64,000 nucleotides of DNA from positions 1 through 64,000 of the forward strand of contig JAJEFJ010000034.1 in the NCBI GenBank assembly GCA_022820485.1, read 5' to 3'. The DNA comes from Candidatus Latescibacterota bacterium (lineage in GTDB: Bacteria > Latescibacterota > UBA2968 > UBA8231). A program made the position numbers and the translations under genes. The notes beneath the pieces were generated by a model, which was not told the origin of the DNA, ran no database searches, and worked only from the letters and a program-made list of their open reading frames with translations. Position 1 is the stretch's first letter. The number at the start of each line of letters is the position of its first letter. This document shows positions 6,845-64,000 of the stretch, one piece after another.

Positions 6845-9132
6845 GCCGCCGCTTCCGCGTCCTGTGCTTGGCCGGCCTTTGCCTCGGCTGCCAAGCCCCG
6901 CCCGAGGCCGAAAGCGACCGCGTCTATGCCGAGGCCCTGAGCCTGCTGCACCAAGGGCGGTTCTCCGAGTCCGAGGCCCTCTTCCGGCGCGTCGTCAGCT
7001 TGGCACCCGACAGCGCGATTGCCCAAATCCGCATCGGCGAAGCCATGATCCGCCAAGGCCGCAGGCAGAGCGCGGGCCACCTGCTCGATGACTTGCCGAC
7101 ACCAGCGCGCCAGCGACCAGAGGCTCGCTTGCTCGAAGCGCGGCTCCTCGCCTTTGGCGGTTTTGCCCGCGAAGCCGAACTCGCCGTCAATGAAATCCTC
7201 GACGAATACCCCAACTCGCTCGACGGCCGCCTGCTGCTGGCCGAACTGTATTTGCAGGCCGCTGCCACCATGAACCTCGAGCGAGCCACGGCCCTGTGCA
7301 GCGAAGCACTATCCGCCCAACCTCAGCGACGCGACGCGCATTACCTGTTGCTCCAAGCCACGCTGCGCCTCGGCCGTTTTCCCGCCGCCTTGGAACGCAG
7401 CCGCTCGTTACTCGACGCCTATCCAGACGATGGGTACGCCTATCTCTTGGCCGGCACCGCGGCTTTCTGGGCGGGGGACGACCGCACGCGGCCTTGGCTC
7501 GAAAGAGCGGTCGATCTGTTGGAGTCGATCGACCGCTTAGAGGCCCTGTGGCTACTCAAGCTGACTCACGAGCGGCCGGGCCAAGATGCACCGGCCCTGC
7601 TGCCGCGCTATCGCTTTCCCCTGCGCACCTCAATGCCAGCAGCGACCGACTTGCGCTTTGTCGATGTGGCTGCGCGCGTCGGCGTGGCCAAGAAAGATCG
7701 CGGTCGCGGCAGTGCTTGGCTCGACTTTGACGGCGACGGCGACTTCGATCTCTTCAGCGTTGGCATCCAAGTCAAACATTCGCTCTACCGCAACGACGGC
7801 GGCCAATTTCGCGATGTCGCCCAAGCGGCCGGATTAGCCGACGCGCACGGTGGTTGGGCCGCGGCTAGCGCGGACTTTGACAACGACGGCGACGACGATC
7901 TCTTTGTCAGCCGCGACGCTTGGGAGGGCCGGGCACCCAACTCACTGTACAGAAACGATTCGGGCGCATTCATCGACAGCGGGTGCGCCGCAGGCATGGC
8001 CGACTCCAGCGACAGCTTTACGGCCGCTTGGCTCGACTTCGACGGCGACGGATACCTCGATTTGTACGTGGCCAACGGCGTCACCGGTACGGGCGCGCCA
8101 AACGCACTCCTGCACAACCAGCAAAACGGTGCGTTCCTCAACATAGCGACCGCCGCCGCAGTCGCCGACTCGGGCCAGACCATTGGCACGGCTGCTGGCG
8201 ACTTCGACAGCGATGGCCTGACCGACTTGTACGCGGTCAACATCGGCCAACTCAACCGCCTCTATCGCAACCTCGGCGACGGCACCTTTGCCGATGTGGC
8301 CGAGCGCGCTGGAGTCCTTTTTCCAGTGGAAGGGGGGTATGTGGCGTTCTTTTTTGACCTTGACAACGACGGTCATCTCGACCTATTTGCTTCAACTATG
8401 AGCGCCTTTCCCGATGTCCTCAATAGCATGGTCACCGGTGAGGCCATAGAGCCGAACCGGCCCTTTCTCTATCGCAACCTCGGCGACGGCACCTTTGCCG
8501 ACATCGCGGTCGCCGCGGGACTCAAGCGCTCTTTCGGCAGTATGGGCGCGGGCCTTGGCGACCTAGACAACGACGGCTTCGTCGATATTTACCTCGCCAA
8601 CGGCGGCCCGCAAATGGCCCGCCTCGAACCCAACGCGCTCTACCGCAACATGGGCGACGGCACTTTCGCCGACATCACGGCCACTGCGGGCACCGGCAGC
8701 CTCGGCAAGGGCCACGGGGCCACCTTCGCCGACTTCGATCAAGACGGCGACTTGGACCTGTACGCTGGCTTGGGTGGCCACTACGACGCCGACACGTGGG
8801 ACAACGCGCTCTACCGCAACGACGGCCCGGCGCAGCACTATCTTTCCATCGAACTCGTGGGCACGCCGGCCAATCGCAGCGCCATCGGTGCGCGCGTGGC
8901 CGCCTTTGCCGCTGGCCGCATCATCCGCGCTCAGCGCCAGAGCGGCTTTGGCTTCGGCAGCAGCAACGAGCCGCTCCTGCACCTCGGGCTGGGGTCGGCC
9001 ACCCGCGTCGATAGCCTATACGTGCTCTGGCCCGGCCAGCCCCCACAGCGCTTCTTTGACCTGCCCGTCGATTGCCGCATCCGCATCGCACAACGCGAGG
9101 CGCACTACCAGATGCTTAGGAGGCCACCATGA
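6841..9132 (+). CDS. TPR / FG-GAP (VCBS) / ASPIC-UnbV lipoprotein
   Basis: 763 aa from GTG 6841, which overlaps the TGA of the preceding gene. That start places a lipoprotein signal at the N-terminus with LCLGC as lipobox; the open frame extends upstream only because it shadows the TPR gene. Residues about 25-240 are TPR-like. From about 270 there are at least seven FG-GAP/VCBS-type repeats, each with an Asp-rich calcium-loop motif such as DFDGDGDFDLF, DFDNDGDDDLF or DLDNDGFVDIY. The C-terminal roughly 90 residues match the ASPIC/UnbV domain (IGARVAAFAAGR, then GSNEPLLHLGLG-type and VLWPG). The family is usually surface-exposed and calcium-binding, and adhesion or complex assembly is a reasonable guess. 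It sits between a TPR lipoprotein and an exoprotein that starts in its stop codon. Confidence 0.88.
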   Translation: MSRRFRVLCLAGLCLGCQAPPEAESDRVYAEALSLLHQGRFSESEALFRRVVSLAPDSAIAQIRIGEAMIRQGRRQSAGHLLDDLPTPARQRPEARLLEARLLAFGGFAREAELAVNEILDEYPNSLDGRLLLAELYLQAAATMNLERATALCSEALSAQPQRRDAHYLLLQATLRLGRFPAALERSRSLLDAYPDDGYAYLLAGTAAFWAGDDRTRPWLERAVDLLESIDRLEALWLLKLTHERPGQDAPALLPRYRFPLRTSMPAATDLRFVDVAARVGVAKKDRGRGSAWLDFDGDGDFDLFSVGIQVKHSLYRNDGGQFRDVAQAAGLADAHGGWAAASADFDNDGDDDLFVSRDAWEGRAPNSLYRNDSGAFIDSGCAAGMADSSDSFTAAWLDFDGDGYLDLYVANGVTGTGAPNALLHNQQNGAFLNIATAAAVADSGQTIGTAAGDFDSDGLTDLYAVNIGQLNRLYRNLGDGTFADVAERAGVLFPVEGGYVAFFFDLDNDGHLDLFASTMSAFPDVLNSMVTGEAIEPNRPFLYRNLGDGTFADIAVAAGLKRSFGSMGAGLGDLDNDGFVDIYLANGGPQMARLEPNALYRNMGDGTFADITATAGTGSLGKGHGATFADFDQDGDLDLYAGLGGHYDADTWDNALYRNDGPAQHYLSIELVGTPANRSAIGARVAAFAAGRIIRAQRQSGFGFGSSNEPLLHLGLGSATRVDSLYVLWPGQPPQRFFDLPVDCRIRIAQREAHYQMLRRPP

Positions 9133-12100
9133 AACTCTTAGCGTTTCTCGTCCTCTGCTTGGCACCACTGATCGCAGCCGACGCCCAACAGGGCCACCGC
9201 GTCACTAGCCGCTCCGTAGTGGTCAACAGAGCCGCGCACTGGCAAAATTGGCAGCTCCCTACCCACGCCGTGAAGGTGTCGCCGGACGGCACAGTCGAGC
9301 CGCACTTTTTCCGCGAGCACTTCAATTTGCTCGACGACCTAGCAACCTTCACCCGCCCCATTCCCGAGCTGCGTCGCCGCAGCAACCAAACCGCCATCCT
9401 CAACATAGATAGCACCCAGACCCGCGACGTAAAAGGCGAGGTCATCGTCGACCGCAAGGGCAACCCCATTTACTCCTACTTCTTTCGCCCGGGTATCAGC
9501 CGCGTCGGCTCGAATGCGGCCGCGGCCGCCAACATCCTCGACGACGATCCAACCACCTTCTGGGAGCCCGACCCGCAGGCACCGCTCGACGACTGGTGGA
9601 TCGAAATAGACTTGGGTCGCGTCGTGGCGGTCGATTCCCTCGTCCTCCACTTCGTCGAAGAAGAACTAGGCGACCCCTTCTTCCAGTTCCGCGTCCTCGC
9701 CGCGCCCGACCAAGAGCCGGTGCAGGAAAACGCCGACAAAATCACCTTTGAACGCATCGCCAACACCAAGGCCCCCAACCGCGACCAGCGCACCTTTCGC
9801 ATCGGTCTCGAACAGCTCAACGCCGATCCCGGCTGGCAGGGCAAGCTGGTAGAGACCATCCGCATAGTGGTCAGCGATACCCGCGGCGAGCGCGGCGCGC
9901 TCATTAGCGCAGAGGAATGGCAGGCTCTGCCGGCCGACGAGCGCGGCGCGATCGTCTATTTCATCCGCGACGAACAGGGCTTTGAAGAGCCGGTCGAGCA
10001 AGCGATCTATGAAAGCCTCGACCTCCAGCGCCAAGGCCGTTTGGATTACTACCGGCGCGAGCGGCCGCGGCTGGCCGGAATCGAGGTGTACGGGTTTGGC
10101 GATAACATCAGCAACGGCTTGGTGGCCGGCGGCGGCCAGCTCGACCTGACCGGCGACGGCTTCATACCAGGACCGGCTTTCGACGCGGATTTCAACACCA
10201 ACTTCCTGCATCTGGTTTGGTCGCCGACCATCGAGCGCGGCGTGCTCACCGTTGATATGGGCGCGTCGTTTTGGCTCGACGCCATGCGCATTTCCTCGAC
10301 CCGGCCCCGGCCCTATATAGACGGGTATTTGATCCGAGGCTCCGACGGCTCGCGCGACACGCGCGGCAAGATCAAGTGGTCGCGCCTCAGTCCCCGCTTT
10401 CGCGAGGACAATAGCCGCGACCGCTTTGAACACATTCTCGACACCTATGATCCTAGTCCCAAGCTCCGCTTTCTCGAAATAAGCATCATCTCGGCAGACC
10501 CGCGCCGTCGAGGCGGGTACAACACCGGGCCGAACATTGCCGAGTACCAGCTTTTTTCCACGGGCTATCCAGCGCAAGTAGTGCTGACCTCCGACCTTAT
10601 TGCATTGCCTGGGGCGCGCAACTTCGGGGCCATTACTTGGGAGGCCGAGACACCCCCAGGTACGACCGTCGCAATCCGCACCCGCACCGGCGACCTGCTG
10701 GGCAAGGTCGTTCGCTACTTCGACAAAACGGGCAACGAAATCACCTATGACGCTTGGAAAAACCTCTTGGCCCGACTCAAGGGGCCAGCCGATACCACCT
10801 TCGTGTCCACCAGCGGCTGGAGCCCTTGGAGCCGCGCCTACCAGCAGCCCGGCGACATCGTCACCTCCCCCGGCCTGCGCAAATTCATGCAGTTCCAAGT
10901 CGAGATGATTACCACCGACCGCGAGGCCGCAGCTTCGATTCGCTCGCTCGCGGTCGAACTGCTCAATCCCGTGGCCGAGCGCATCGCGGCCGAGCTGTGG
11001 CCGGCCTCGGTGGAAGTCTCCGGTGTGCGGGAGACCTTTGACGTCTTTGCTCAGCCCTACTTCATCGAGTCGCCTGCGGCCTCGCGCAGTTCTGGCTTCA
11101 ACGAGATTCTGCTGACCATGCCGGCCTCGGAAAAGCTCGAACTCTTGGAGCTTGGCATCAGCGGCCCAGATGGCGAAAAGGTCTTTCGCCCTGGGACCGA
11201 GCGCGGCGTGTTCACAGCCAGCGACCAGACTCAAGCCGCGCTTTTGGCCAACGGCGGCGATTCGATCTGGGTGCGCCTAGACGACGCGCTCAACATCCTG
11301 CCCGCAGCCAGCCGCACGTACAATCGCATTACCCTTGAAGGCGAAGAGGTGCCTGTGACCCAAGACGGCTTGCCGCTTACGGGCGCGGCGTACGGCACCC
11401 TCGACGAAGACGAGCGGGGGGCCATCCGCTACTTCCGCCGCAATGGTGACCAGTTCAGCGAGATCGACCAAACCAGCTACCAAGATCTGCCCGGCGAGGA
11501 GCAAGGCCCCGTCCGCTACTTCCGCATTCTGCGCGGCGACGGCGCTCAGTTCCCCTTTGACGCGCTCGGCGACTCGCTCGACTCGCGCGCGTACAACCGC
11601 CTTTCCGCGACCGAGCGCGGCATTGTAACCGGGCCGGGCCAGCGCTTCCGCTTGCGCCTTTCAGCACCGGTTTTTCTCAACGGCACCACATTACGCCTGT
11701 TCGTGCGCAATGCAGCGAGCGCTGATGCTGAGGTGGCTTGGCAGGCCGTTGAAGCGGGCAACGCCGACGAAGGGGTTACCAGCAACACGCTGTCGATCAA
11801 CGTCCCCATCGACAGCGATCTCGTCCATGGTCTCACCGTCGGTCCCAACCCCTTTACCCCCAACGGCGACGGGATCAACGACGCGGCTGAAATCTCGCTG
11901 GATATCTTCAAGCTCACTTCTAGCCGCCGCCTGCAAGTGCGGATTTACACGCTCAATGGGCGACGGGTTTGGCGGCGCGAGGAAATGGTGCTAAGCGGCC
12001 GCACCACCGTGCGTTGGGACGGCGTCGATGACCACGGTCGCCGTGCGCCGCCCGGGCTATATCTGTGCCAAGTCCAACTCGACGCCGACGCCGAGGGGCA

Positions 12101-12140
12101 ACCGACGACCCAAGCGCGTATTATCGCCGTGGCCTACTAG
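9129..12140 (+). CDS. Secreted exoprotein with discoidin-like region and C-terminal FlgD/CHU_C-type domain
   Basis: 1003 aa. The signal peptide is residues 1-19 or so (cleavage near ADA-QQ). A region at about 120-200 (ILDDDPTTFWEPDP, then WIEIDLGRVVAVDSLVLHF) resembles F5/8 type C (discoidin) carbohydrate-binding modules. The middle is beta-rich and shares short blocks with the proteins at 17334-19424 and 19570-21690 (RTRTGD, SPWSRAY, KFMQFQVEM). The last 110 residues begin VGPNPFTPNGDGINDAAEI and end IIAVAY, the FlgD Ig-like / gliding-motility C-terminal pattern that serves as a sorting signal in type IX secretion. Strong Shine-Dalgarno GGAGG; ATGA overlap with the gene upstream. The ligand is unknown. 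Confidence 0.85.
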   Translation: MKLLAFLVLCLAPLIAADAQQGHRVTSRSVVVNRAAHWQNWQLPTHAVKVSPDGTVEPHFFREHFNLLDDLATFTRPIPELRRRSNQTAILNIDSTQTRDVKGEVIVDRKGNPIYSYFFRPGISRVGSNAAAAANILDDDPTTFWEPDPQAPLDDWWIEIDLGRVVAVDSLVLHFVEEELGDPFFQFRVLAAPDQEPVQENADKITFERIANTKAPNRDQRTFRIGLEQLNADPGWQGKLVETIRIVVSDTRGERGALISAEEWQALPADERGAIVYFIRDEQGFEEPVEQAIYESLDLQRQGRLDYYRRERPRLAGIEVYGFGDNISNGLVAGGGQLDLTGDGFIPGPAFDADFNTNFLHLVWSPTIERGVLTVDMGASFWLDAMRISSTRPRPYIDGYLIRGSDGSRDTRGKIKWSRLSPRFREDNSRDRFEHILDTYDPSPKLRFLEISIISADPRRRGGYNTGPNIAEYQLFSTGYPAQVVLTSDLIALPGARNFGAITWEAETPPGTTVAIRTRTGDLLGKVVRYFDKTGNEITYDAWKNLLARLKGPADTTFVSTSGWSPWSRAYQQPGDIVTSPGLRKFMQFQVEMITTDREAAASIRSLAVELLNPVAERIAAELWPASVEVSGVRETFDVFAQPYFIESPAASRSSGFNEILLTMPASEKLELLELGISGPDGEKVFRPGTERGVFTASDQTQAALLANGGDSIWVRLDDALNILPAASRTYNRITLEGEEVPVTQDGLPLTGAAYGTLDEDERGAIRYFRRNGDQFSEIDQTSYQDLPGEEQGPVRYFRILRGDGAQFPFDALGDSLDSRAYNRLSATERGIVTGPGQRFRLRLSAPVFLNGTTLRLFVRNAASADAEVAWQAVEAGNADEGVTSNTLSINVPIDSDLVHGLTVGPNPFTPNGDGINDAAEISLDIFKLTSSRRLQVRIYTLNGRRVWRREEMVLSGRTTVRWDGVDDHGRRAPPGLYLCQVQLDADAEGQPTTQARIIAVAY

Positions 12141-12296: not shown

Positions 12297-14960
12297 GTGA
12301 ACCGGAAATGGATGTTCTGGACGGCAATAGCCATTCTATGGCTCGGCAGTGCTGCTGCTAACGCCCAAGAATACGGCGCTCGCCTCGGCACGGTCAAAAG
12401 GGGTGGGGTGGTTTCCTTTGAGCCACAGGGGTCCGGTGTCCTGTTCGGCGCCCTCGACCCGGCTAAGCGCAGGTGGTACGTGCCGCAGGAGCTTTTTAAC
12501 GAATACCAGTGGCGGCAGTGGGAATACTCCAATTACGCCCGCGATCACTACCAGCGCTACGTCAGCGCCATCCGCGAAGGCGATTACTACTACGACCTCT
12601 ACGGCAACCTCGTCACCCGAGGCTGGCTGGTTTTCAACAACTCGCAGACCCAACCCCGGCAGTTTGGCTCTTCGGTGCTGAAGTCCAGTAATTTCGAGCG
12701 CTGGTTTAGCGGCGTGGTCATCTCGGCCGACTCCAAGGGCCAGCACCACTACGCCCTGACGGCCGGCACCAAAATTCGCTCGACCCTGACGCCGATGACC
12801 TTCTCTAAGCCGCGCTGGGACGGCATTCAATTCGACTACGCAGCCGATAAATACCAAGGCACCCTGATCTACTCCCGTATCAGCCGCCCCGGCGGCGCGT
12901 CAACCAACGATCAAGAGAGCTTGGTCACCAATGCCACATCCATGTTCGGCAGCCGCGCCACCGCGCAGGTAGGCGATTTCGCCACCGTGGGGTTGACCAT
13001 GGTCAACGCCCACCAGTCCAACACCCTTATCGACGGCTTTACCGGCAACCCCTTCACCGGCGAGCTATCGGTCGATCAGAACCAGACCGTTTCGATCGTC
13101 GAGATCGTCTTGCGCGACGACAGCCCCGAGGACGGCGTCGGCGGTGCGGCCTTCTTCAGCGCCGGTTCGGACATCATCATCACCTATCTCGACGGCACCC
13201 AAGACAACGGCAAGGCCATCCGCTTTGAGCCGATCGTCGAGGGCGGCCTCGTGGGGGAGGGCTTCCTTTCGGCCGATGGGGCCGAAGAGATCCGCCTGCG
13301 CTACGACTTTGACAGCCCGGCCTTTGTCAACCGCGCCTCGGGCACCAAAGAAGAAATCAAAAAGGTCGAATTCCGCCTCGTGCTGGGCAACGACTATCAG
13401 GTCTGGGTCACCTCCGACAGCCAACTCAATGCCAGCGGTGAGTCCGTACTCTTGCTCGTCGCCCAAGCCGAGGGCAACGTCCGCGACAACACCAATTTGC
13501 AGATCGTCAGTTTCGACTACGGCCTACCGACCTCCACCCAGATCTGGGGCGCAACCCTAGAGCTGCAACAGGTCCTCGGCTTCGATTTCTACGGCGAGTA
13601 CGACCTCAACTACAACTACACCAAATATCCCAATGTTGTCGCCAAAACCCACACCACCTTCTCGGGCATCCGCGGCGACCGCGCCGCGTCCGCGTGGATG
13701 ATGAACCTCTCGCGGGTCGCGTTTCCCTTCTTCTTCTTTGGCGAGGCGTACAGCATGGATCCTCGCTACTCCACCCGTACATTCACCGCCCAAGGCGATG
13801 GCTTTATCGACTACGAGGACGAACGCATCCACGTCGTCGAACTAGTCGAGGACAACGACGACCAAGACGAATTTCCCGACACCGTGCGCAAAGACTGGCA
13901 GGTCGGCGATCCGAGCGTCTTCCCCGGCTGGGATGAGAACAACGACTTTATCTCGGATTTCAACCAGAACGACAACCGCTTCTTGAGCAACCTCATCCCG
14001 GACTACGAGGAGCCGTTCCTGCGCCACAACGTCGATCGGCCCGACTTCCTCTTCGGCATCGACCTGAACAACAACCTGTGGGTCGATCGCTTTGAAAACG
14101 ACGAATTGCCCGACTACCCTTACAAGAAAGATCACCAAGGATACAATGCCTACGGCGGCGTCCATTTCACCCCAGAGCTGCGGCTGATGGTCGGCGTCTT
14201 GCGCGAGGATCTCATTTCTTCCAACCAAAAAAACCACGCCAATTACGTCCTGCTGACCCTCGACCGCGACACCCCTGCTTGGGGTCGCTTCCGCGTCTTT
14301 GAGATGCTCAAGTCCACGACCGACGACATTCCCGACGACCTCTTGCAGTGGCTGCCCAACGCCAATATCCGCACTGGTGAACCGACCAAAGTCGAGGATC
14401 CTCTCATCGCTCGCGACGCTTGGATCAACAGCCTGTGGGTCGGCCACGACTACAAGCTGCGCGGCCTGCTGACGGCCAATTACCTCAAATACGATCTGTA
14501 CCACCAGCGGCTGAATGCCAATGAGCGCGCGCTGTTGGGCCTGCGCGAGCGCGACTTTTTCTTTGGCCTAATCAACAAAATCAGCTACCGCTTCGACTTT
14601 GGGCACCTGTGGCTGGAGCCGCGCTGGAAAAGCGAGTACCGCCGTCAGAGCCGCGACCTGATTTCAGCCGACGAACGCACCGAACTGGCCGAGATCGGCG
14701 GCTTCATCCTCGGCTTTCCCCTGCTCAGCCACACAACCCTGATGAGCGGGCTGGAGATGACCTTCCTCAACGACCTGAAGCGCGACTCTAACGACTTCAA
14801 CGGCCTAGTCTGGGCCTTGCAGTTGGCCAATATCTCCGATTATCTCGGCTACAAGGTCACAACCCATGCGGGCATGAAAATCGACCGCCGCCAGCCACGG
14901 GGCGAGGACGCGGTAATTATCAATCAGATCTTTATCTCGATCTACGCGGGATTGCAGTAG
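12297..14960 (+). CDS. Large probable outer-membrane beta-barrel protein, function unknown
   Basis: 887 aa from GTG 12297, with AAGGAGG 7 nt upstream. The signal peptide ends near ANAQ-EYG (about residue 24). The rest is rich in aromatic residues and alternating hydrophobic/polar stretches. The last 250 residues look like successive amphipathic beta-strands (DYKLRGLLTANYLKYDLY, NKISYRFDFGHLWLEPRWKS), and the chain ends IFISIYAGLQ, as outer-membrane barrels often do. An acidic insert at about 500-600 (DENNDFISDFNQNDNRF) could bind calcium. I do not recognise a named family. It follows the T9SS-type exoprotein with its own translation start, so it may be a surface partner, but that is inference. 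Confidence 0.6.
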   Translation: MNRKWMFWTAIAILWLGSAAANAQEYGARLGTVKRGGVVSFEPQGSGVLFGALDPAKRRWYVPQELFNEYQWRQWEYSNYARDHYQRYVSAIREGDYYYDLYGNLVTRGWLVFNNSQTQPRQFGSSVLKSSNFERWFSGVVISADSKGQHHYALTAGTKIRSTLTPMTFSKPRWDGIQFDYAADKYQGTLIYSRISRPGGASTNDQESLVTNATSMFGSRATAQVGDFATVGLTMVNAHQSNTLIDGFTGNPFTGELSVDQNQTVSIVEIVLRDDSPEDGVGGAAFFSAGSDIIITYLDGTQDNGKAIRFEPIVEGGLVGEGFLSADGAEEIRLRYDFDSPAFVNRASGTKEEIKKVEFRLVLGNDYQVWVTSDSQLNASGESVLLLVAQAEGNVRDNTNLQIVSFDYGLPTSTQIWGATLELQQVLGFDFYGEYDLNYNYTKYPNVVAKTHTTFSGIRGDRAASAWMMNLSRVAFPFFFFGEAYSMDPRYSTRTFTAQGDGFIDYEDERIHVVELVEDNDDQDEFPDTVRKDWQVGDPSVFPGWDENNDFISDFNQNDNRFLSNLIPDYEEPFLRHNVDRPDFLFGIDLNNNLWVDRFENDELPDYPYKKDHQGYNAYGGVHFTPELRLMVGVLREDLISSNQKNHANYVLLTLDRDTPAWGRFRVFEMLKSTTDDIPDDLLQWLPNANIRTGEPTKVEDPLIARDAWINSLWVGHDYKLRGLLTANYLKYDLYHQRLNANERALLGLRERDFFFGLINKISYRFDFGHLWLEPRWKSEYRRQSRDLISADERTELAEIGGFILGFPLLSHTTLMSGLEMTFLNDLKRDSNDFNGLVWALQLANISDYLGYKVTTHAGMKIDRRQPRGEDAVIINQIFISIYAGLQ

Positions 14961-17333: not shown

Positions 17334-19424
17334 TTAGTACGCGACGGCTACGACGCGGCTCTGCTCGGCATCGCCCGAATCCCCGGCGACAAAGACGCGG
17401 GCCACGTACAGACCCGGGGGAACTAGCTGGCCTTGGTCGTCGCGGCCGTTCCACACCTTGTCTGTGTAGCGGCCATTTGCCTCTTCACCGGCGAAGAGGA
17501 CGCGCACGCGCTGACCGCTCAAGTCATAGAGCGCGACTTCGACCGGCCGCGGGGTGCTCAGCGATAGCAGGCTATAGTGGATGATCGCCTCGTCGTTGAT
17601 GCCATCGCCATTGGGGGTAAAGGGGTTGGGCGCAGCCTGCACCTGACCCAATAGCTGCCCTTCGGCCAATACGGACGGGCTGAGTACCGTGGTGCCGGAA
17701 AAGGCGTCCTCGTCGCCGGCGCCCAAAAAGGCCACATTGCCTGGGTCAATGACTTGGGCGGCACCCGGCTCGGTGGTGAGCCGCGCCGCCGCGGTGAAAT
17801 TGGTGCTGTACGTTAGCACGTTGGTCTGGAAGCGAATATGCACCTCGGTCTGGTCATCGGTTACCACGGGGAAGCGCACGGCAAAGTGGTCGTCGGTCAC
17901 CTCGGCAATGGCGAAATCCCCACTGGCCGCGTCGAGGCTGTCGAATAGGTGCTCGGCCACGACCGCGTCAGCGCTATCAATGATCTGCACTGCGTCGATG
18001 CTCGACACCCGCGTCGGCGTGTTGATGTCGATGGTGTCAAAGCCGCGCAGGCCGTCCGTGCCCATAGTGGTGCGCACGGCAAAGGTGAAGGACACTTCCT
18101 CAGATACCTTTACCTCGCGCGGAAAAACCTCGCCGACTAAGGCGTCGGCAAACGGCGGCGTCAACAAGTCGAAGCTCAGCGACTTGATCACCCGCGCGGC
18201 CTCTAGGTCGCTGCTGTTAAAGACGACCTCAAACTGCATGTAGCGGCGCGGACTAGGCGAAACAATGGGCAGGCCCGGGCCGTTGGCCGCGTCTGCCGGA
18301 TAAGGCGTGCTAAAAGGACTCCAATTGATCAGGTCGTCGGTCACGGCTCCGGCCATCCACTCGCGGCCCGCGTCATCGGTAATGGGCGTCTGACCGGCCT
18401 CTTGGGGAAATTTCCGATACTCGGCTAGGCCCATCTCCTCCCCGGGGTTTGCCAGCGAAAAAGGAATGTCCTCGGCGTCTTGCTTGCCGCGCAGTCGGCG
18501 GGTGTACACAAAGGGCGAGGTGTCCGTGCCGGTGCGCGTGCGAATCTGTGCGCTGGAGAAGCGCGGATCGCCCAACACCTCTTCCACCCAGCGCAAGGTG
18601 CCCCACACAGCGGGTTGCCCAGCGTCGAAAATGTCCGACACGTACTGAGCCCGCGACAAAAAGCCCTTGCCGAAAACCTCGATCTCGTCGATCTCAAAAT
18701 CTACCGGCGAAGTCGCCCGCAAGCGCAGGTGCTGAACGTAGCGCGGCGGGTCGAGCGGCACGTCGATAACCGCGACTTGGTTGTCGGTCTCGGCGATCAG
18801 CGGCCTCCAGATAGGCGTGTTCTCGCTGGTCAGATTCAGGCCGTCGTTGGTAAAAAGCTCATACGCCCGCAGGTAGTCGTTTTGGAAGGGGGTCGAGGGC
18901 GAGGGCACAACCGTATTGCGCGGGTAGATGCGTATGCGCTCGACCCCGAAGCGCGCTCCTAAATTGAGCAGGACTAGGATGCCGAGGGAATTCTGATTCT
19001 TGCGCTCAAAGGCCAACAGCTCGCCGCCCGGCTCGTCCGAGAGCAACTCCTTTAGCATCATCTCCAAGTCGAGCGGCTTGAACGTGCCGCTGAAGTCGAA
19101 GACATTGGGCGAATCTATATCGCCGCCGCGTTCGATAGTGCCGACGGCCACGTTCTCTCCCTCGGCAATGCGCAGAGGCAGGATGCTGTGGGAAAAGTCG
19201 TCGCGTGCGAATTCGATTAAGTCGCCAGGTGCGTTGCCCACCAGCAGGTTGTTGGGATCTAAGGGCGAGCGGTGCTCGGCGTCAATGGCGGTGACGACTG
19301 CCTCGCCTTCACCCTGCCAGTCCAACTCGCCGCCCTCTCCAATCGAGACCGTATCGAGAGCCCAACTTCCACTCGGCAGCCAGAGCACTAAGACGAGGCT
19401 GGCCGCGGCACAATGCGCTTTCAT
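17334..19424 (-). CDS. Secreted exoprotein with C-terminal FlgD/CHU_C-type domain
   Basis: Start chosen at ATG 19424 (MKAHCAAASL), 6 nt behind GGAGG; an in-frame ATG at 19451 would add nine residues ahead of the signal peptide. The product is about 696 aa. The signal peptide ends near SWA-LD. The middle is beta-rich and paralogous to the proteins at 9129 and 19570: IRTRTGTDTSPFVYTRR, RRYMQFEVVF and LLTPPFADALVGEVFPREV have counterparts in both. The C-terminus starts AAPNPFTPNGDGINDEA and ends VVAVAY, a FlgD Ig-like/CHU_C-type domain. It is a likely surface or secreted protein and type IX cargo; the ligand is unknown. The gene is divergent from its paralogue at 19570 with 145 nt between starts. 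Confidence 0.82.
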   Translation of the reverse strand: MKAHCAAASLVLVLWLPSGSWALDTVSIGEGGELDWQGEGEAVVTAIDAEHRSPLDPNNLLVGNAPGDLIEFARDDFSHSILPLRIAEGENVAVGTIERGGDIDSPNVFDFSGTFKPLDLEMMLKELLSDEPGGELLAFERKNQNSLGILVLLNLGARFGVERIRIYPRNTVVPSPSTPFQNDYLRAYELFTNDGLNLTSENTPIWRPLIAETDNQVAVIDVPLDPPRYVQHLRLRATSPVDFEIDEIEVFGKGFLSRAQYVSDIFDAGQPAVWGTLRWVEEVLGDPRFSSAQIRTRTGTDTSPFVYTRRLRGKQDAEDIPFSLANPGEEMGLAEYRKFPQEAGQTPITDDAGREWMAGAVTDDLINWSPFSTPYPADAANGPGLPIVSPSPRRYMQFEVVFNSSDLEAARVIKSLSFDLLTPPFADALVGEVFPREVKVSEEVSFTFAVRTTMGTDGLRGFDTIDINTPTRVSSIDAVQIIDSADAVVAEHLFDSLDAASGDFAIAEVTDDHFAVRFPVVTDDQTEVHIRFQTNVLTYSTNFTAAARLTTEPGAAQVIDPGNVAFLGAGDEDAFSGTTVLSPSVLAEGQLLGQVQAAPNPFTPNGDGINDEAIIHYSLLSLSTPRPVEVALYDLSGQRVRVLFAGEEANGRYTDKVWNGRDDQGQLVPPGLYVARVFVAGDSGDAEQSRVVAVAY

Positions 19425-19513
19425 GTCCATCCTCCGTGCGGTTTGCTGCATAAAACAACCAAAGTACAGGCATAAATCAAGTTAAATAAGGTGCGCCGTG
19501 TGCATATCTTAAC

Positions 19514-19569: not shown

Positions 19570-21690
19570 ATGCAGTACATCATTGTTTCGTGTTTCCTGC
19601 TCGTCCTATCGATTGCGCCGGCGCACAGCCGCGGGGAGTTTCGCGTCGGGGGAGACGAGGGCAACCCTTGGCCCAGCCTGCTGTCCGAAGAAGGGGCTGG
19701 TGAGTACTGGCTCTTTGATGCCGAGGGCCAACTCGTGGGCACCGAACCCGTGGGCGTCACGCCCCACGGCGCGGCTGCGGATACCCTCATCGACTTTGCC
19801 GACAACGCCATTGGGCCGCGCTTCATCGACCCAGCGGTCAACCTAACCCTGATTGACCCCAATGCCGCGGATATCAACACTCTACTGCCGTACACTGGAG
19901 GCCAAATCCAGACGACCGACGGCTGCTCGGCCCGCGACGACCAGATCCGCGCCGTGAAAAAGCAATTCGACGGCGATTTCACTACAGCCCACTTCCGCCG
20001 CTTCACCCCAGGCCAAGGCATCTTCAGCGGCGGCAGAATCGTCGCCGGGGTCACCGGCGAAGGCTGGAAAAACTCCGTGGTCATCGACTTTAGCACAGCT
20101 GTGCCAGTCAACCGCATCCGCTTTCTTCCCCGCCTCGGGCAGGAAGACGACATCTTGCTCATCGAGGAACTCACTGAGCCTAAGCCGCCCCTAGAGGCAT
20201 TTGGCGAAGACAGCTTCGCCGCCAACTTCCTCGCTTGGTACGAACTGCGCAAAGGCGACAACAACGTGCGCTTTGCCAACAGTCCCTGCGACCGAGTCAG
20301 CCGCGTCACTAAAGGCCTGCGCTGGGTCCGCAACCAAGACCCCGCGCTTACCGTAATCGAATCCAACCGCGAAAATCTCGATCCCGTAGTAGAGTTGCGC
20401 TTTCCCACCGAGTCGATCCGCTACATCACCGCCCAAGCCTTTCCCCTGCGCGACTGGGAGGTCGCCGAATTCGAGGTGTACGGCGAGGGCTTTGTCGAGG
20501 AGACCGTCCTCGTCACCCAGATTCTCGACTTTGGCCAGCCAATCAACTGGGGCAAAATTCGCTGGGACGCCGACGTGCCCGAGGGCACCCGCATCGAGGT
20601 TCGCACCCGCACTGGCAACACCCCCGATCCCAGCCTCTACTTCGACGAAAACATCAACGGCGACATCCGCCCGATCACCTTAAAAGAATACGAAAAACTC
20701 GACCCGTCCGGTCGCCTGCCCACCGTGTACGACACCGACAACTGGAGCTTCTGGTCACCGCCCTACGACTTTGCCGCGGGTTTGCGCGACAGCGACGAGC
20801 CGGCTGAGGCGTGGCGCGACGGCACGCCGCTTTTGTCGCCCGGGCCGAGCCGCTACATCCAACTCGCCTTTCGCCTGTTTTCTACCTTTACCACTGCGCC
20901 GCGCATCCGCTCACTCACGATCCAATTCGGCGATGCGCCGGCTGCCCGAGAAATCCTCGGCGAAGTGTGGCCCATTGCCGTCGATTCCTTCGCGCCCACG
21001 GAATTTACCTACGTCATCCGGCCGGAATTTACCGCTGGCGACACCGGCTTCGACCGGCTGGAGATCCGCACCCATGCCCAAGTCCAAGCCGTCTCTGCGG
21101 TCAAACGCGACGGCACCGAACTGGACTTGAACGCCTTTGTTCCAGATATACAAGACGACCACTTCGTGGTGTCCTTCCCCCGCTTGCAAGGCGAAGACGA
21201 CAGCTTCAAACAGCTCGAAGTGAGCTTTGTGGTGCCGGTCCTGCGCTTTGGTACTGAGTTTTCGGGCTGGGTCTTCGACAGCAACGACCCCGACCAGATC
21301 AAACAGCAAGTTCGCCCGGGTAACGCCACCTTTCGCTTTTCAGGCGATGCCCTCGCCGTCAACACGCCCGTCGGCGGCCGGCTCCTCGTCGATATTGCCG
21401 TGACTTCCAACCCGCTTACGCCGAATGGCGACGGAGTGAACGAGACCGTGGAAATCGCCTATAAGCTGCGCGAAGTTACAGCTAGCCGCCCAGTGCAACT
21501 GGCGATCTACAATCTCGCTGGTCAACTCGTAGTCGAGTTGCCGCCCATCACCGCGCGCAGCGGCGAATTCGCCCATCGCTGGGACGGCCGCGACGCCGCT
21601 CAGCAGCTCGTGCCCCCGGGTACCTATATCTGGCGACTGCAACTAGAAGACAAAGAAGAACGCGCTGGTATTCTCTCAGTCGCTTATTGA
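19570..21690 (+). CDS. Secreted exoprotein with C-terminal FlgD/CHU_C-type domain
   Basis: 706 aa, with signal peptide 1-20 (cleavage near AHS-RG). An AAGGAAGAG Shine-Dalgarno precedes ATG 19570. The region FGQPINWGKIRWDADVPEGT, followed by IEVRTRTGNTPDPSLY and WSFWSPPYDF, matches blocks of the paralogues at 9129 and 17334, so the three form one family. The C-terminus begins SNPLTPNGDGVNETVEI and ends ILSVAY, the FlgD/CHU_C-type Ig fold. Probably surface-exposed or secreted through the type IX route; role unknown. An intrinsic terminator lies 28 nt after the stop. Confidence 0.82.
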   Translation: MQYIIVSCFLLVLSIAPAHSRGEFRVGGDEGNPWPSLLSEEGAGEYWLFDAEGQLVGTEPVGVTPHGAAADTLIDFADNAIGPRFIDPAVNLTLIDPNAADINTLLPYTGGQIQTTDGCSARDDQIRAVKKQFDGDFTTAHFRRFTPGQGIFSGGRIVAGVTGEGWKNSVVIDFSTAVPVNRIRFLPRLGQEDDILLIEELTEPKPPLEAFGEDSFAANFLAWYELRKGDNNVRFANSPCDRVSRVTKGLRWVRNQDPALTVIESNRENLDPVVELRFPTESIRYITAQAFPLRDWEVAEFEVYGEGFVEETVLVTQILDFGQPINWGKIRWDADVPEGTRIEVRTRTGNTPDPSLYFDENINGDIRPITLKEYEKLDPSGRLPTVYDTDNWSFWSPPYDFAAGLRDSDEPAEAWRDGTPLLSPGPSRYIQLAFRLFSTFTTAPRIRSLTIQFGDAPAAREILGEVWPIAVDSFAPTEFTYVIRPEFTAGDTGFDRLEIRTHAQVQAVSAVKRDGTELDLNAFVPDIQDDHFVVSFPRLQGEDDSFKQLEVSFVVPVLRFGTEFSGWVFDSNDPDQIKQQVRPGNATFRFSGDALAVNTPVGGRLLVDIAVTSNPLTPNGDGVNETVEIAYKLREVTASRPVQLAIYNLAGQLVVELPPITARSGEFAHRWDGRDAAQQLVPPGTYIWRLQLEDKEERAGILSVAY

Positions 21691-58801: not shown

Positions 58802-58832
58802 GGCCGTTCGCCGACGGGCGAACGGCCTTTTT
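58802..58832 (+). terminator. Intrinsic terminator
   Basis: GGCCGTTCGCC (58802-58812) and GGCGAACGGCC (58817-58827) with a 4-nt loop, followed by five Ts (58828-58832). The lptG stop codon on the other strand lies in the T tract. Confidence 0.9.
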
Positions 58833-59904
58833 ATTTGTGCACGCGCCACAGCAGCACCAAGGCCAATACGGCAAACAACAGGTTGGCTATCCACGCGCCT
58901 AGCCAAGGCGAGAGGATTTGATTCCAACCGAGGGCTTGGCCGGCCTTGACGCAACTGTAGTAAACAAAGCAGATCAGGACCCCCAAGCCGAAGCTGTTGG
59001 CCAAGCCAGCGCGGCGGGCATTGGCACCGAGGATCGCGCCAAGGGCGATGATGATGAAACTAGTCAGGGGAAAGGATACTTTCAGATGCAAATCGACGCG
59101 CTGGCGCGTGGCGTCCTCCCCGTTGAGCGTGGCGCGGGCGATGTAGTCGGCCAACTCGGCGTAGCTCATTTCCTCGGGATCCTTCTGCTGGCGAGCAAAG
59201 TCGCTGGGGAGCAACGACAAACTCGGTAAGGATAGGGTATCAAAAGAAGAAGTCGCCACAGCCTCGTCCGCGGCAAAACGAAAGCGGCGGCCTTCAAAAA
59301 GCACCCACATGCCCTCCCGCCACTCCATGCGCCGAGCCACGGCGCGCTCCAGCGGCGCGTAGCCGCGCAGTCGCTCCCAAGACACTTCGCTGGCGCGTTG
59401 CCGCTCCGCATCGTAGCTGCGGGCGTACACGAACTGGTTGTCCGCGTCTTGGAGCAGGACTTGGCGGCGCGATCCATCGCTGCGGTGATAGGACTTAATC
59501 TCATCGTTGATTTGGTTGTAGCGATAGGTGGCGGACGGCACCACCCAATCGGTAAAGAAAAAGGCCGCGACCGCAACGACGAGGGCACACGCCAAAACCG
59601 GGGCCAGCAGGCGATACAGGCTAATGCCAGTGGCCTTCATGGCGGCAATTTCATTCTGGCGCGCCAAGCTGGTCAAGGCAAAGAGCGCGCCCAGCAGGGC
59701 GGCGATGGGCAGGGTCAAGATGAGCCAGTACGGGAGCCGATAGACGTAGTAGAGCAAGATCTGCTCGGGACGAGCTTCAAAGTCGATAAACGTGTCGATG
59801 TTTTCGGTGAGATCGATAATCACCGCAATGAGCAACAGGCTGACCACGGCAATTCCCAGACACAACAGAAAGCGGCGCGTCAGATAGAGGTCGAGGATGC
59901 GCAT
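58831..59904 (-). CDS. lptG: LPS export permease LptG
   Basis: 357 aa from ATG 59904 (MRILDLYLTRRF); the open frame extends upstream into lptF. Three N-terminal helices, a periplasmic jellyroll-type segment of about 150 residues, and three C-terminal helices form the LptF/LptG pattern. LARQNEIAAMKATGISLYRLLAP is the conserved coupling helix region. With LptF and the LptB ATPase (not in the window) it lifts lipopolysaccharide out of the inner membrane. Its start nearly touches the lptF stop. Confidence 0.88.
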   Translation of the reverse strand: MRILDLYLTRRFLLCLGIAVVSLLLIAVIIDLTENIDTFIDFEARPEQILLYYVYRLPYWLILTLPIAALLGALFALTSLARQNEIAAMKATGISLYRLLAPVLACALVVAVAAFFFTDWVVPSATYRYNQINDEIKSYHRSDGSRRQVLLQDADNQFVYARSYDAERQRASEVSWERLRGYAPLERAVARRMEWREGMWVLFEGRRFRFAADEAVATSSFDTLSLPSLSLLPSDFARQQKDPEEMSYAELADYIARATLNGEDATRQRVDLHLKVSFPLTSFIIIALGAILGANARRAGLANSFGLGVLICFVYYSCVKAGQALGWNQILSPWLGAWIANLLFAVLALVLLWRVHK

Positions 59905-59905
59905 C

Positions 59906-61204
59906 TCAGGTCTCTTTCGCCCCTCGGCGGCCAGCGCGGTCGTACGCGACCACCCGCAACAGCCCCCATCCGACGAGGGCAAAAACCAAATTGGGCGCCC
60001 ACATCGCCAACGGCGGTGGAATATAGCCGCGGTCGGCCAACTCCTCGCCGCCGATGAGGAACATCCAGTAGATCCAAAAGAAGAACAGGCTGATGCCTAC
60101 GGAGACGGCGGCACCGCGGCGGCGAATCAGCGCCCCCAATGGGGCACCGACCAGCGCGAAGACCAGGCAGGCGGCCGGAATGGATAGCTTCTTGTGAATC
60201 TCGACCAAGTACTCGTTGATCCGCCCCGCGCGGCGGTCTATGTGCCGCCACTGTCGGCCCAGAGCCTCGGCCGCCTGTTCCCTTTCTCGCTCTAGCCCGT
60301 CAGCCGTGGAGTCGGCGAGTTGGCTTTGGTGCAGTTCGAGGTAGCGCGCGGCAATCGAATCGAGGCGTCCGTAGGCGCGCTCCTGCTCGCGGCGGCGCTC
60401 CTGCACCAAGCGGTGCATGGCCGCGATGTCTAGCTCGCGGTCGCTGCGATAGGACGAGGGGCGGTGCTCGTAGCGGCGGCGCTCGTCCTTGATGTGCAGC
60501 ACTTGGCGGGCAAAAGTGCCGTAGAAAAAGCGTTCCTCTTGGCCAGCTTCGACGCGCTGAACATGGCCTTCCTCCAACTCTAAGCGGATGTAAGCCCCAT
60601 CGCCTAACAGCGCGAGGCGGCCTCTAGGGGCGTGGACAATAACCGGCGGCCCGGGGCGCGAGGCGTCGTAGAGTGCGATGCCAGTTAGTTCGTTAGTCTC
60701 CGGGTCAATCTGGCGGATGAGCAGGTGATAATCGCCCAAGTCGGGTATGAAGACTCCTTCCTTTTCCCTCAGCACTAAGGCCGCTTTCGTCCGTTGCAAG
60801 CTCGACGACAGGACCCGGGCTTGGTGGTTCCAGTCCGGGAGGATCTGGTCGTTAAAAAGCACCATCAACAGGGTGAGCAAAAACGCGGCTACCAGCACCG
60901 GCCGCAGGAGCAGCCAAAAGCTCACCCCGCAGGCTTTGGCTGCGATGATTTCCCCGTCGGCTGCGAGGCGGGCAAAGGCCATGAGTACGGCGATGAGCAC
61001 GGCCATCGGCACGGCCAGCGCCACGATCCAAGCTAAGTTGAAAAGCAAAAGTTGGAGAGCGGCCAGCAGGGTTAGCCCCTTGCTCAGCACCTGATCCATC
61101 GTCTGCAATACGACGTCGATCAGCAGGATGAAGAGGATCAGCGCAAAGCCGAGCGCAAAGGGCCAACCGTGCTCTTTGAGCACATAGCGGGACAGGGTCG
61201 TCAT
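59906..61204 (-). CDS. lptF: LPS export permease LptF
   Basis: 432 aa. TTLSRYVLKEHGWPFALGFALILFILLIDVVLQ at the N-terminus; ARLAADGEIIAAKACGVSFWLLLRP is the coupling region. The periplasmic part carries an Arg/Glu-rich helical insert (about 255-310, RRREQERAYGRLDS) that makes it longer than usual. The C-terminal helices contain KLSIPAACLVFALVGAPLGALIRRRG. It precedes lptG in the customary order. Confidence 0.88.
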   Translation of the reverse strand: MTTLSRYVLKEHGWPFALGFALILFILLIDVVLQTMDQVLSKGLTLLAALQLLLFNLAWIVALAVPMAVLIAVLMAFARLAADGEIIAAKACGVSFWLLLRPVLVAAFLLTLLMVLFNDQILPDWNHQARVLSSSLQRTKAALVLREKEGVFIPDLGDYHLLIRQIDPETNELTGIALYDASRPGPPVIVHAPRGRLALLGDGAYIRLELEEGHVQRVEAGQEERFFYGTFARQVLHIKDERRRYEHRPSSYRSDRELDIAAMHRLVQERRREQERAYGRLDSIAARYLELHQSQLADSTADGLEREREQAAEALGRQWRHIDRRAGRINEYLVEIHKKLSIPAACLVFALVGAPLGALIRRRGAAVSVGISLFFFWIYWMFLIGGEELADRGYIPPPLAMWAPNLVFALVGWGLLRVVAYDRAGRRGAKET

Positions 61205-61682: not shown

Positions 61683-64000
61683 GTGAATTTAGAGGTGTTT
61701 CTCCGCTTTTCCCGCCAAGCGTTTTCCTCGTGGCTGTGTGTTTGCTTGCTCGCGGTAGTGGTGCGCGCCGAGCCCAAGCTACATTTTGAGCCGCTATACG
61801 GCCCGCTTTCCCAGCGCTTTGCCGTCCCTAGCCAAGCTGCCTTTGGGACTGGCCAGCCGCTCTTGCCCGCCCCCGACCGCGCGCTGATCTCGTACCAAGC
61901 CACAGTGGACTCCTTGGGAATGGCCCACTACGGCCGCCGCGTCAGCGGATTCACCGAGGGACCAACGGTCGCCGTGGCTTTAGACCACTATCTCCGCATG
62001 GAATACCAAGCGAGGCACCGACAGCTTTGGCACCAGCAAATCCGCCGCGACTTTCGCAGCACAGCTTCCGGGCAGCGCCAGCGCCGGGGCAGCCGCTTTG
62101 AGTGGACGGTGCCCTTTTCCGCGCCCAAGCCCCTGCGGCGCTTTATCGGCGACGAAGGCCCCAGCCTCGCGCTCAATGGTTCGCGCACCATCATCGTTTC
62201 TGGCAAGAGCGAGTGGACCGACGGCGAGGTGCAGACCTCGTTTGGCCGCAGTTCCAAGTTTCCCTCGCTGGGCATCGAACAGGAATCTGATTTCACGGTG
62301 GAAGGCAAAGTCGGCGAGCTGATCAACATCCGCATCAATCAAGACACCCAAAACTTCGGCTCGGCCATTGGCTCCGGTTTGGGCGATCAGCTATCCAACC
62401 AGATCAAGCTCGACTACGAAGGCGAGGAAGACTCCATATTCCAAGAGATACAGGCCGGCAACACCACGCTAGAGCTGCCCAACACGCGCTTCGTCGGCTT
62501 CCGGCAGAAGAACAAGGGCCTCTTTGGCATCCGCGCTAAAGGGCACGTCGGACCGCTGGCCTTTACGACCGTAGCCAGCCACGAAAAGAGCAAGTCCAAC
62601 CGCCAGACCTTCAAGGGCGGAGCGGCCATCGACACGCTCCAGCTAAGGGACTACCAATACATCCGCAACACGTATTTCTTCTTACACGAGTTCTATCGCG
62701 CCCACCTTGCCGACTTCCGCAGTCTGTTGGCAGGAGTGCCGTTTGGCGCGGAAAACTTCGTCGATATCAGCCGCCTCGAAGTCTATATCAACGACTTCAA
62801 TACGCGGAATGACGCCGAACTGTTCGCCAAGCCCGGCGTTGCGTGGGTCGATCCGTCCGATTCCCTCTCCACCATCGAGTGCTTTGACGCGGCGGGCAAT
62901 CGCCTGCGCAACAGCGGCTGCTTTGAGGAAGGAACTTGGCACCGGCTCGACCCGGACGACGACTACTCGGTCGTGGCCGAGGCGGGTTATATCATCCTCA
63001 ACAGGCCCGTATCCGCCCCCTATGCCATGGCCGTGCATTTCAAAACCAACGCGCCGGACTTCGACGGCACGCTCCAACAGGAGACAGCGCGGCTCACAGC
63101 CGGTGCCGAATCCGACTCCTTGTACCTGAAGCTGATCAAAGCCCGCAATCCCCGCCCGGGTTTTCCCACTTGGAACCTAGAGTGGAAAAACGTGTACCGC
63201 ATTGCCTCTGGGTTTTCCACTGGCCGCCGCTTCGACCCCAAGACTTTGCAGGTCGATATCGCCAAGGAAGTGCCCGGCCAAGAAGACCAACTTTCGCAAC
63301 AGGGGCGCTCCTACTTGCAGATTTTGGGCTTGGACGAGCGCGGCAAAGACCCCGGCAGCGCACCCGACCGCGTCATCGACGCCGACTACATAGGGCTGGA
63401 CGACATCCGCGGGCACTTGATTTTCCCCGACCAGCGCCCCTTTGATCCGCGCGCCAACAAATATCGCGGCCTGCTCGACGAACCCGTCCCGGCCATCTAC
63501 GACGAGCAGCAGCAGCGCACCCAGATCGAGGCCAGCCGCTACAAAATCCTCGTCCGCGCCGCCTCCTCCGAGCAGCGCATCCGGCTGGGCGGCATCTTCG
63601 GCGGCGTCCGGCCCGAGACCGTGGAGGTGCAGCTAAACGGCCGACCTCTAACGCGAGATACCGACTACCGAGTCGATTACACCGGCAGCGTGACGTTTAT
63701 TGGTTCGGTCGCTCAGGAAGTGGCCGACCCCGGCGCGGACTTGGAAATCTCCTTTGAATCCGAGGACGTCTTCAACATCGGCAGCCAGCAGAAGACCTTG
63801 TTGGGCTTGCGCACCGAGTACGAGTTCTGGGGCGGCGACGGGCGCGTGGGCAGCACCATGATCTACAACAACGAGCGTTCGAGCGACCGGCGGGTGCGGG
63901 TGGGCAATGAGCCGACGCGCACGGTGATCTGGAACCTCGACCTGCGCGCCCGGCGCGAAGTGCCAGTCCTCACCCGCGTCGTCGATATGCTGCCGCTGGT
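61683..64000 (+). CDS. sprA: SprA-like type IX secretion outer-membrane translocon (3' end missing)
   Basis: The frame runs from GTG 61683 (GTG 61695 also possible) off the right edge: 772 codons. Signal peptide about 1-32 (LCVCLLAVVVRA-EP). Residues about 200-305 match the SprA N-terminal region: VEGKVGELINIRINQDTQN, IKLDYEGEEDSIFQEIQAGN, GLFGIRAKGHVGPLAFTTVA. A second block at about 620-770 also matches: EVQLNGRPLTRDTDYRVDYTG, DPGADLEISFESEDVF, KTLLGLRTEYEFWGGDG, RVRVGNEPTRTVIWNLD. SprA forms the very large barrel through which type IX cargo crosses the outer membrane. Full SprA proteins exceed 2000 aa, so most of the gene lies outside. The match is by remembered family sequence; a profile search would settle it. 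Confidence 0.85.
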   Translation, partial: MNLEVFLRFSRQAFSSWLCVCLLAVVVRAEPKLHFEPLYGPLSQRFAVPSQAAFGTGQPLLPAPDRALISYQATVDSLGMAHYGRRVSGFTEGPTVAVALDHYLRMEYQARHRQLWHQQIRRDFRSTASGQRQRRGSRFEWTVPFSAPKPLRRFIGDEGPSLALNGSRTIIVSGKSEWTDGEVQTSFGRSSKFPSLGIEQESDFTVEGKVGELINIRINQDTQNFGSAIGSGLGDQLSNQIKLDYEGEEDSIFQEIQAGNTTLELPNTRFVGFRQKNKGLFGIRAKGHVGPLAFTTVASHEKSKSNRQTFKGGAAIDTLQLRDYQYIRNTYFFLHEFYRAHLADFRSLLAGVPFGAENFVDISRLEVYINDFNTRNDAELFAKPGVAWVDPSDSLSTIECFDAAGNRLRNSGCFEEGTWHRLDPDDDYSVVAEAGYIILNRPVSAPYAMAVHFKTNAPDFDGTLQQETARLTAGAESDSLYLKLIKARNPRPGFPTWNLEWKNVYRIASGFSTGRRFDPKTLQVDIAKEVPGQEDQLSQQGRSYLQILGLDERGKDPGSAPDRVIDADYIGLDDIRGHLIFPDQRPFDPRANKYRGLLDEPVPAIYDEQQQRTQIEASRYKILVRAASSEQRIRLGGIFGGVRPETVEVQLNGRPLTRDTDYRVDYTGSVTFIGSVAQEVADPGADLEISFESEDVFNIGSQQKTLLGLRTEYEFWGGDGRVGSTMIYNNERSSDRRVRVGNEPTRTVIWNLDLRARREVPVLTRVVDMLPL

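What the first reader, a model, noticed from the sequence alone, without database searches (positions are those of the whole stretch)
61683..64000. SprA homologue: a type IX secretion translocon in a probable non-Bacteroidota genome
Seen: two separate blocks (about residues 200-305 and 620-770) follow SprA order and wording, such as IKLDYEGEEDS, QLNGRPLTRDTDYRVDY and RVGNEPTRTVIWNLD. Known: SprA is the outer-membrane channel of T9SS, best studied in Bacteroidota. Inference: the gene content here points to another FCB phylum, so this may be a variant T9SS with different partners.
Basis: partly seen in the sequence, partly recalled or inferred. Interest (0 to 1): 0.75.

Follow-up and report, generated by a model that had tools for sequence, protein, structure and literature searches.

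The report
Secretion channel gene, Latescibacterota bacterium
The gene is a complete outer-membrane protein-export channel (SprA) of the type IX secretion kind in a bacterium of the uncultured phylum Latescibacterota; the channel, its carrier proteins and about 80 exported proteins are all there, but the motor that drives the machine in its known hosts could not be found, so it may show how such a channel works with another power source.

Summary
The ORF at 61683 is the first 772 codons of a full-length, intact sprA/sov gene (2167 codons, to 68186 on the contig). It scores 617 bits against the T9SS translocon model TIGR04189 (cut-off 200). The genome belongs to Latescibacterota (nearest named kin are MAGs of that phylum, often mislabelled Gemmatimonadetes). 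SprA is in 63 of 64 held genomes of the phylum, so it is native. The same genome has a porU-porV gene pair, 16 PorV-family proteins, about 85-90 type A C-terminal sorting domains, and many type-B-like tails, three of them in this window. So this is a T9SS outer-membrane module outside Bacteroidota. It differs in three ways: no recognisable GldK, GldL, GldM or GldN motor or ring (negative searches without a positive control); no PorP/SprF; and in this family PorU has Ser in place of the catalytic Cys690, while other families keep Cys. The SprA neighbourhood is shared with KSB1, Zixibacteria and Calditrichota, which suggests vertical descent. A 2024 paper does not list Latescibacterota among possible T9SS phyla. 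New variant of a known kind.

The parts
61683..64000 (+). sprA/sov, residues 1-772 of 2167; the gene ends at contig C22 position 68186 (stop TAA), outside the window. Signal peptide-like N terminus.
   Evidence: TIGR04189 290.7 bits on this part, 616.7 bits whole; PF14349 82.8 bits beyond the window
58831..59982 (-). lptF/lptG-type permease gene, divergent neighbour of sprA; the lptF/G - sprA junction is conserved in Latescibacterota, KSB1 and Calditrichota
   Evidence: gene-order table; family named from sequence and order, not from a profile run
59906..61204 (-). second lptF/lptG-type permease gene, next to sprA
19570..21690 (+). putative T9SS cargo, type-B-like C-terminal sorting domain (PNPxTPNGDGxN...AVAY-type tail)
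   Evidence: PF13585 CHU_C 41.3 bits, cut-off 27; TIGR04131 23.7 bits, below cut-off 35
17334..19451 (-). putative T9SS cargo, type-B-like tail
   Evidence: PF13585 26.4 bits (just under cut-off 27), FlgD_ig 27.1; alignment A4
9129..12140 (+). putative T9SS cargo, type-B-like tail
   Evidence: PF13585 33.5 bits; alignment A4
12297..14960 (+). 887-aa secreted protein of unknown family that accompanies the type-B-like cargo genes in many loci of this genome
   Evidence: fam1, 14 members in the sampled loci; no Pfam or NCBIfam match

Best explanation
The gene encodes SprA (Sov), the giant outer-membrane channel of a type IX secretion system native to Latescibacterota. Most likely, Sec-exported proteins with a C-terminal sorting domain enter the SprA pore from the periplasm. 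There they are bound by a PorV-family carrier barrel and leave sideways to the cell surface. The genome supplies the channel, 16 PorV-family proteins, a porU-porV pair, about 85-90 type A tails and many type-B-like tails. The system departs from the Bacteroidota model in two ways. (1) The inner-membrane motor GldL/GldM and ring GldK/GldN are not recognisable, so energy comes either from a diverged motor or from another source. (2) In this family the sortase PorU has Ser at the catalytic Cys, so cargo is probably not cleaved and anchored by the usual cysteine chemistry. Shown here: gene identities, distribution, gene order, the Cys/Ser state. Inferred: transport route (from Flavobacterium structures), and the functional effect of the missing motor and Cys.
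For: SprA 616.7 bits full length, profile match to PDB 6h3i. Present in 63 of 64 Latescibacterota genomes, incl. closed single-contig ones. PorV family 16 hits in own genome, all 17 tested genomes over cut-off; own PorV matches solved PorV. PorU 634 bits over cut-off 420, match to solved PorU 6za2, next to porV as one cluster. Type A CTD: about 85-90 hits over the cut-off, with the YPNPFN...K tail pattern. Type-B-like tails in the window. GldM none in 11 Latescibacterota plus 82 genomes of the phylum that holds the KSB1/Calditrichota loci; GldL none over cut-off in 64; GldN none in 18; GldK best 109.5 bits against cut-off 350 in 6 genomes; PorP none in own. PorU Ser at the Cys690 position (C690 named catalytic in PMC5121618).
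Against: No secretion was measured. The absence of GldK/L/M/N rests on profiles built from Bacteroidota, and no Bacteroidota genome with a complete T9SS could be searched as a positive control (the tool warned of this). A short or diverged motor could escape. SprE/PorW, PorT, PorD, the PPI plug and PorX/Y were not searched. The genome is a MAG (93% complete, 8% contamination estimate), though two closed genomes of the genus agree.
Confidence: 0.82

Rival explanations
1. It is an ordinary, complete T9SS: GldK/L/M/N are present but too diverged for the Bacteroidota profiles.
For: SprA itself is only about 30% identical between Latescibacterota families; GldL is short and easily missed; weak GldL matches of about 20 bits occur, but also in control genomes without T9SS. 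GldK-like formylglycine-enzyme domains exist at 75-110 bits.
Against: PorV, PorU, SprA and CTD profiles score far over cut-off in the same genomes, while GldM and GldN give nothing near it in about 100 and 18 genomes. GldK-like hits cover only the common FGE domain.
Confidence: 0.3
2. SprA is a relic or does another job (e.g. assembly of other surface proteins) and is not a working secretion channel here.
For: Motor not found; PorU nucleophile lost in this family.
Against: The gene is intact and conserved across the phylum, the genome holds 16 PorV-family proteins and about 85-90 type A tails, and PorV genes lie beside CTD genes (L232, L233). A relic would not keep this.
Confidence: 0.06
3. 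The contig is a Bacteroidota contaminant in the bin.
For: The bin has an 8% contamination estimate.
Against: SprA and its flanks match Latescibacterota over the whole length (95% aa identity, same gene order), including closed chromosomes; SprA of Parabacteroides is only 24% identical.
Confidence: 0.01

Closest known systems
T9SS translocon SprA-PorV of Flavobacterium johnsoniae (PDB 6h3i; PMC10994853)
   Same: Full-length SprA match over residues 56-2046, PorV carrier, type A sorting tails.
   Different: There the GldLM motor and GldKN hub power release of the carrier-substrate complex; here none of these was found.
PorU-PorV attachment module of Porphyromonas gingivalis
   Same: porU and porV adjacent; PorU 634 bits over the equivalog cut-off, with its own CTD.
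   Different: Catalytic Cys690 is Ser in this family; His is kept. An M6-like protein, a 1029-aa MA-peptidase/propeller protein and a 302-aa protein follow in the cluster.
SprA loci of KSB1, Zixibacteria and Calditrichota MAGs
   Same: Same sprA neighbourhood (lptF/G or comEA-coaD flanks); GldM also not found in 82 genomes of the phylum holding the KSB1/Calditrichota loci.
   Different: They carry a peptidase-M28/glutaminyl-cyclase-like gene just after sprA; their PorU keeps Cys.

Membership tests
SprA/Sov translocon | Full-length match to the SprA equivalog model over cut-off | tested here: met
   TIGR04189 616.7 bits, cut-off 200; PDB 6h3i match over most of the chain
SprA/Sov translocon | Pfam SprA_N domain | tested here: met
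   PF14349 82.8 bits, cut-off 27, at contig 64731-66194
Type IX secretion system | PorV carrier | tested here: met
   16 NF033709 hits in own genome, best 234 bits. The strict PorV equivalog NF033710 gives 157.8 bits, below its cut-off of 250
Type IX secretion system | PorU sortase, family level | tested here: met
   NF033707 634 bits, cut-off 420
Type IX secretion system | PorU catalytic cysteine | tested here: not met
   Ser at the Cys690 position in own genome and all PorU-type C25 proteins of this family examined; only one C25 gene in own genome and in two closed genomes of the genus
Type IX secretion system | Cargo with type A C-terminal sorting domain | tested here: met
   About 85-90 TIGR04183 hits over cut-off 23; tails aligned
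Type IX secretion system | GldL/GldM (PorL/PorM) motor | tested here: inconclusive
   No hit over cut-off: GldM; GldL. No positive control was available
Type IX secretion system | GldK/GldN (PorK/PorN) ring | tested here: inconclusive
   GldN none in 18 genomes; GldK only sub-cut-off FGE-domain hits
Type IX secretion system | PorP/SprF partner of type B cargo | tested here: inconclusive
   TIGR03519 no hit in own genome; no positive control rang
Type IX secretion system | SprE/PorW, PorT, PorD, PPI, PorX/PorY | not tested
Type IX secretion system | CTD-dependent secretion measured in cells | not testable with these tools
   Needs culture or a host strain

The most novel reading that the evidence does not exclude
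A phylum-wide type IX secretion system that works without the rotary GldLM motor and GldKN ring: SprA and many dedicated PorV carriers, energised by another or no dedicated motor, and in this family with a sortase that has lost its cysteine.
Probability: 0.45. Interest if true: 0.82.

Novelty: new variant of a known kind. Interest (0 to 1): 0.6.

Why it matters
In Flavobacterium the motor is thought to pull the carrier-substrate complex out of the SprA channel (PMC10994853). A natural SprA-PorV-CTD system without that motor would show which part of the machine is the ancestral core and whether the motor was added later with gliding. It also corrects the statement that T9SS is restricted to Bacteroidetes (PMC4793230) and adds Latescibacterota to the phyla listed as possible hosts in 2024 (PMC11285876).

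Tried and rejected
Pfam on the window part alone: no hit, because SprA_N lies just beyond the window edge. Contamination: rejected by closed genomes and synteny. Horizontal gain from Bacteroidota: not favoured; SprA of Zixibacteria forms one clade, the KSB1/Calditrichota loci group together and most Latescibacterota loci group together in the quick tree; one row, L076, is a wrong ORF, some Latescibacterota-labelled rows fall elsewhere on a long branch, and the support is SH-aLRT only. PilM-like gene after sprA as a replacement motor: the fold is PilM (Foldseek E 2e-16), but it lies with comEA, coaD and dprA, so a competence or pilus role is likelier; kept only as a lead. Positive control for GldM: none reachable; the only Bacteroidota record found with sprA (NZ_OY725768) is a 388-kb piece and held no GldK hit. 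The glutaminyl-cyclase name for the KSB1 neighbour is from sequence memory, not a profile run. Literature: no held paper joins 'type IX secretion' and 'Latescibacter'.

Full report
Observation. The ORF starting at 61683 (GTG) is open to the window end, and its contig (C22, 113 kb) carries it on to 68186: 2167 aa, no internal stop. The window part alone scores 290.7 bits against TIGR04189 and the full protein 616.7 bits (cut-off 200). Pfam SprA_N (82.8 bits) lies just outside the window. A profile of 14 Latescibacterota SprA proteins matches the solved Flavobacterium SprA over residues 56-2046.

Which organism. The best named relatives of this SprA (95% aa identity) are MAGs labelled Latescibacterota or Gemmatimonadetes; two closed chromosomes (OX638377, OY282352) are labelled Latescibacteria. 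In the SprA tree the window sits inside this group, sister to a clade that holds a Handelsmanbacteria MAG. PAUC34f, a sponge-associated lineage placed beside Latescibacteria (PMC7081726, PMC5596340), is a likely identity, but this is inference. SprA is found in 63 of 64 held genomes of the phylum.

The rest of the system. Own genome: 16 PorV-family proteins, one C25 peptidase that is PorU by the equivalog model, 634 bits over 420, and about 85-90 type A sorting domains over cut-off. Their tails have the (Y/F)PNPFN start and mostly a basic end. porU and porV are neighbours, followed by an M6-like protein (matches 'T9SS-dependent M6-like' NF052323, below cut-off), a 1029-aa protein with PD40 propeller and MA-peptidase matches, and a 302-aa protein. 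This cluster recurs whole or in part in families f1, f4, f7, f9 and f10 of the phylum and in Calditrichota G065. In f4 (G038) porV and the downstream genes remain but PorU is absent from the cluster; a 1897-aa C25 protein lies elsewhere. Several PorV genes lie beside CTD genes (C2, C79, C49), as expected for carrier-cargo pairs.

Type-B-like cargo in the window. The proteins at 9129-12140, 17334-19451 and 19570-21690 end in a PNPxTPNGDGxN ... GxY ... VAY domain that matches Pfam CHU_C (33.5, 26.4 and 41.3 bits; cut-off 27); TIGR04131 matches only one of them, below cut-off. They belong to a family with 48 members in the loci sampled (20 own-genome loci, the porUV locus and the window), often in rows and next to an 887-aa-type protein without any profile match (window 12297-14960), a PPIase-like protein (window 3677-5320) and TPR proteins. 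No PorP/SprF was found.

What is missing or changed. GldM: none in 11 Latescibacterota genomes and 82 genomes of the phylum that holds the KSB1/Calditrichota loci. GldL: none over cut-off in 64. GldN: none in 18. GldK: only common FGE-domain hits, at most 109.5 bits against 350. These are negative results with Bacteroidota profiles and no positive control. PorU: the catalytic Cys690 (named in PMC5121618) aligns with Ser in own genome and in all PorU-type proteins of five other genomes of this family, the His being kept; families f7, f10, KSB1 and Zixibacteria keep Cys. Longer C25 proteins with Cys exist in other genera of the family, but own genome and two closed genomes of its genus have only the Ser form.

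How it probably works. By the Flavobacterium structures (PMC10994853), the CTD is bound in the SprA pore by PorV and the carrier-substrate complex must then be released, a step that needs the motor there. Here channel, carriers and cargo are in place, so the same route is the best guess. The energy source is open. PorU without its cysteine may act as a binding partner of PorV instead of a cutting enzyme. Both last points are inference.

Neighbourhood and history. sprA lies divergent to lptF/lptG and before comEA, a PilM-fold gene (pLDDT 90, Foldseek to PilM E 2e-16), a bitopic protein, coaD and dprA. The lptF/G flank and the comEA-coaD order recur in Latescibacterota, KSB1, Zixibacteria and Calditrichota in various combinations, so the locus is old and vertical descent is the simplest account.

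Known or new. T9SS was described as restricted to Bacteroidetes (PMC4793230); a 2024 paper lists other FCB phyla as possible hosts but not Latescibacterota (PMC11285876). No held paper joins the two terms, but the library lacks most subscription journals. SprA, PorU and PorV here are members of known families; the combination is a variant.

Noticed in passing
window 1712-22792: One copy of a repeated gene cassette: type-B-like tail proteins with an 887-aa protein, PPIase-like, TPR and other genes; similar cassettes occur many times in the genome.
   Followed up: partly
L190 12535-16251 (own PorU): Catalytic Cys replaced by Ser throughout the PorU-type proteins examined in this family.
   Followed up: yes
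L002 8222-10948: comEA, PilM-fold and bitopic genes between sprA and coaD; competence or pilus genes in one row with sprA.
   Followed up: partly
L100-L140 (KSB1, Zixibacteria, Calditrichota): A conserved peptidase-M28/glutaminyl-cyclase-like gene directly follows sprA in 14 loci.
   Followed up: no
L232, L233: CTD gene with a PorV-family gene on one side and a large outer-membrane-receptor-like gene on the other, in two places.
   Followed up: no
L085, L076: Records titled Gemmatimonas phototrophica and Gemmatimonadaceae hold SprA of the Latescibacterota type (50-52% identity to the window's): likely mislabelled MAGs.
   Followed up: no
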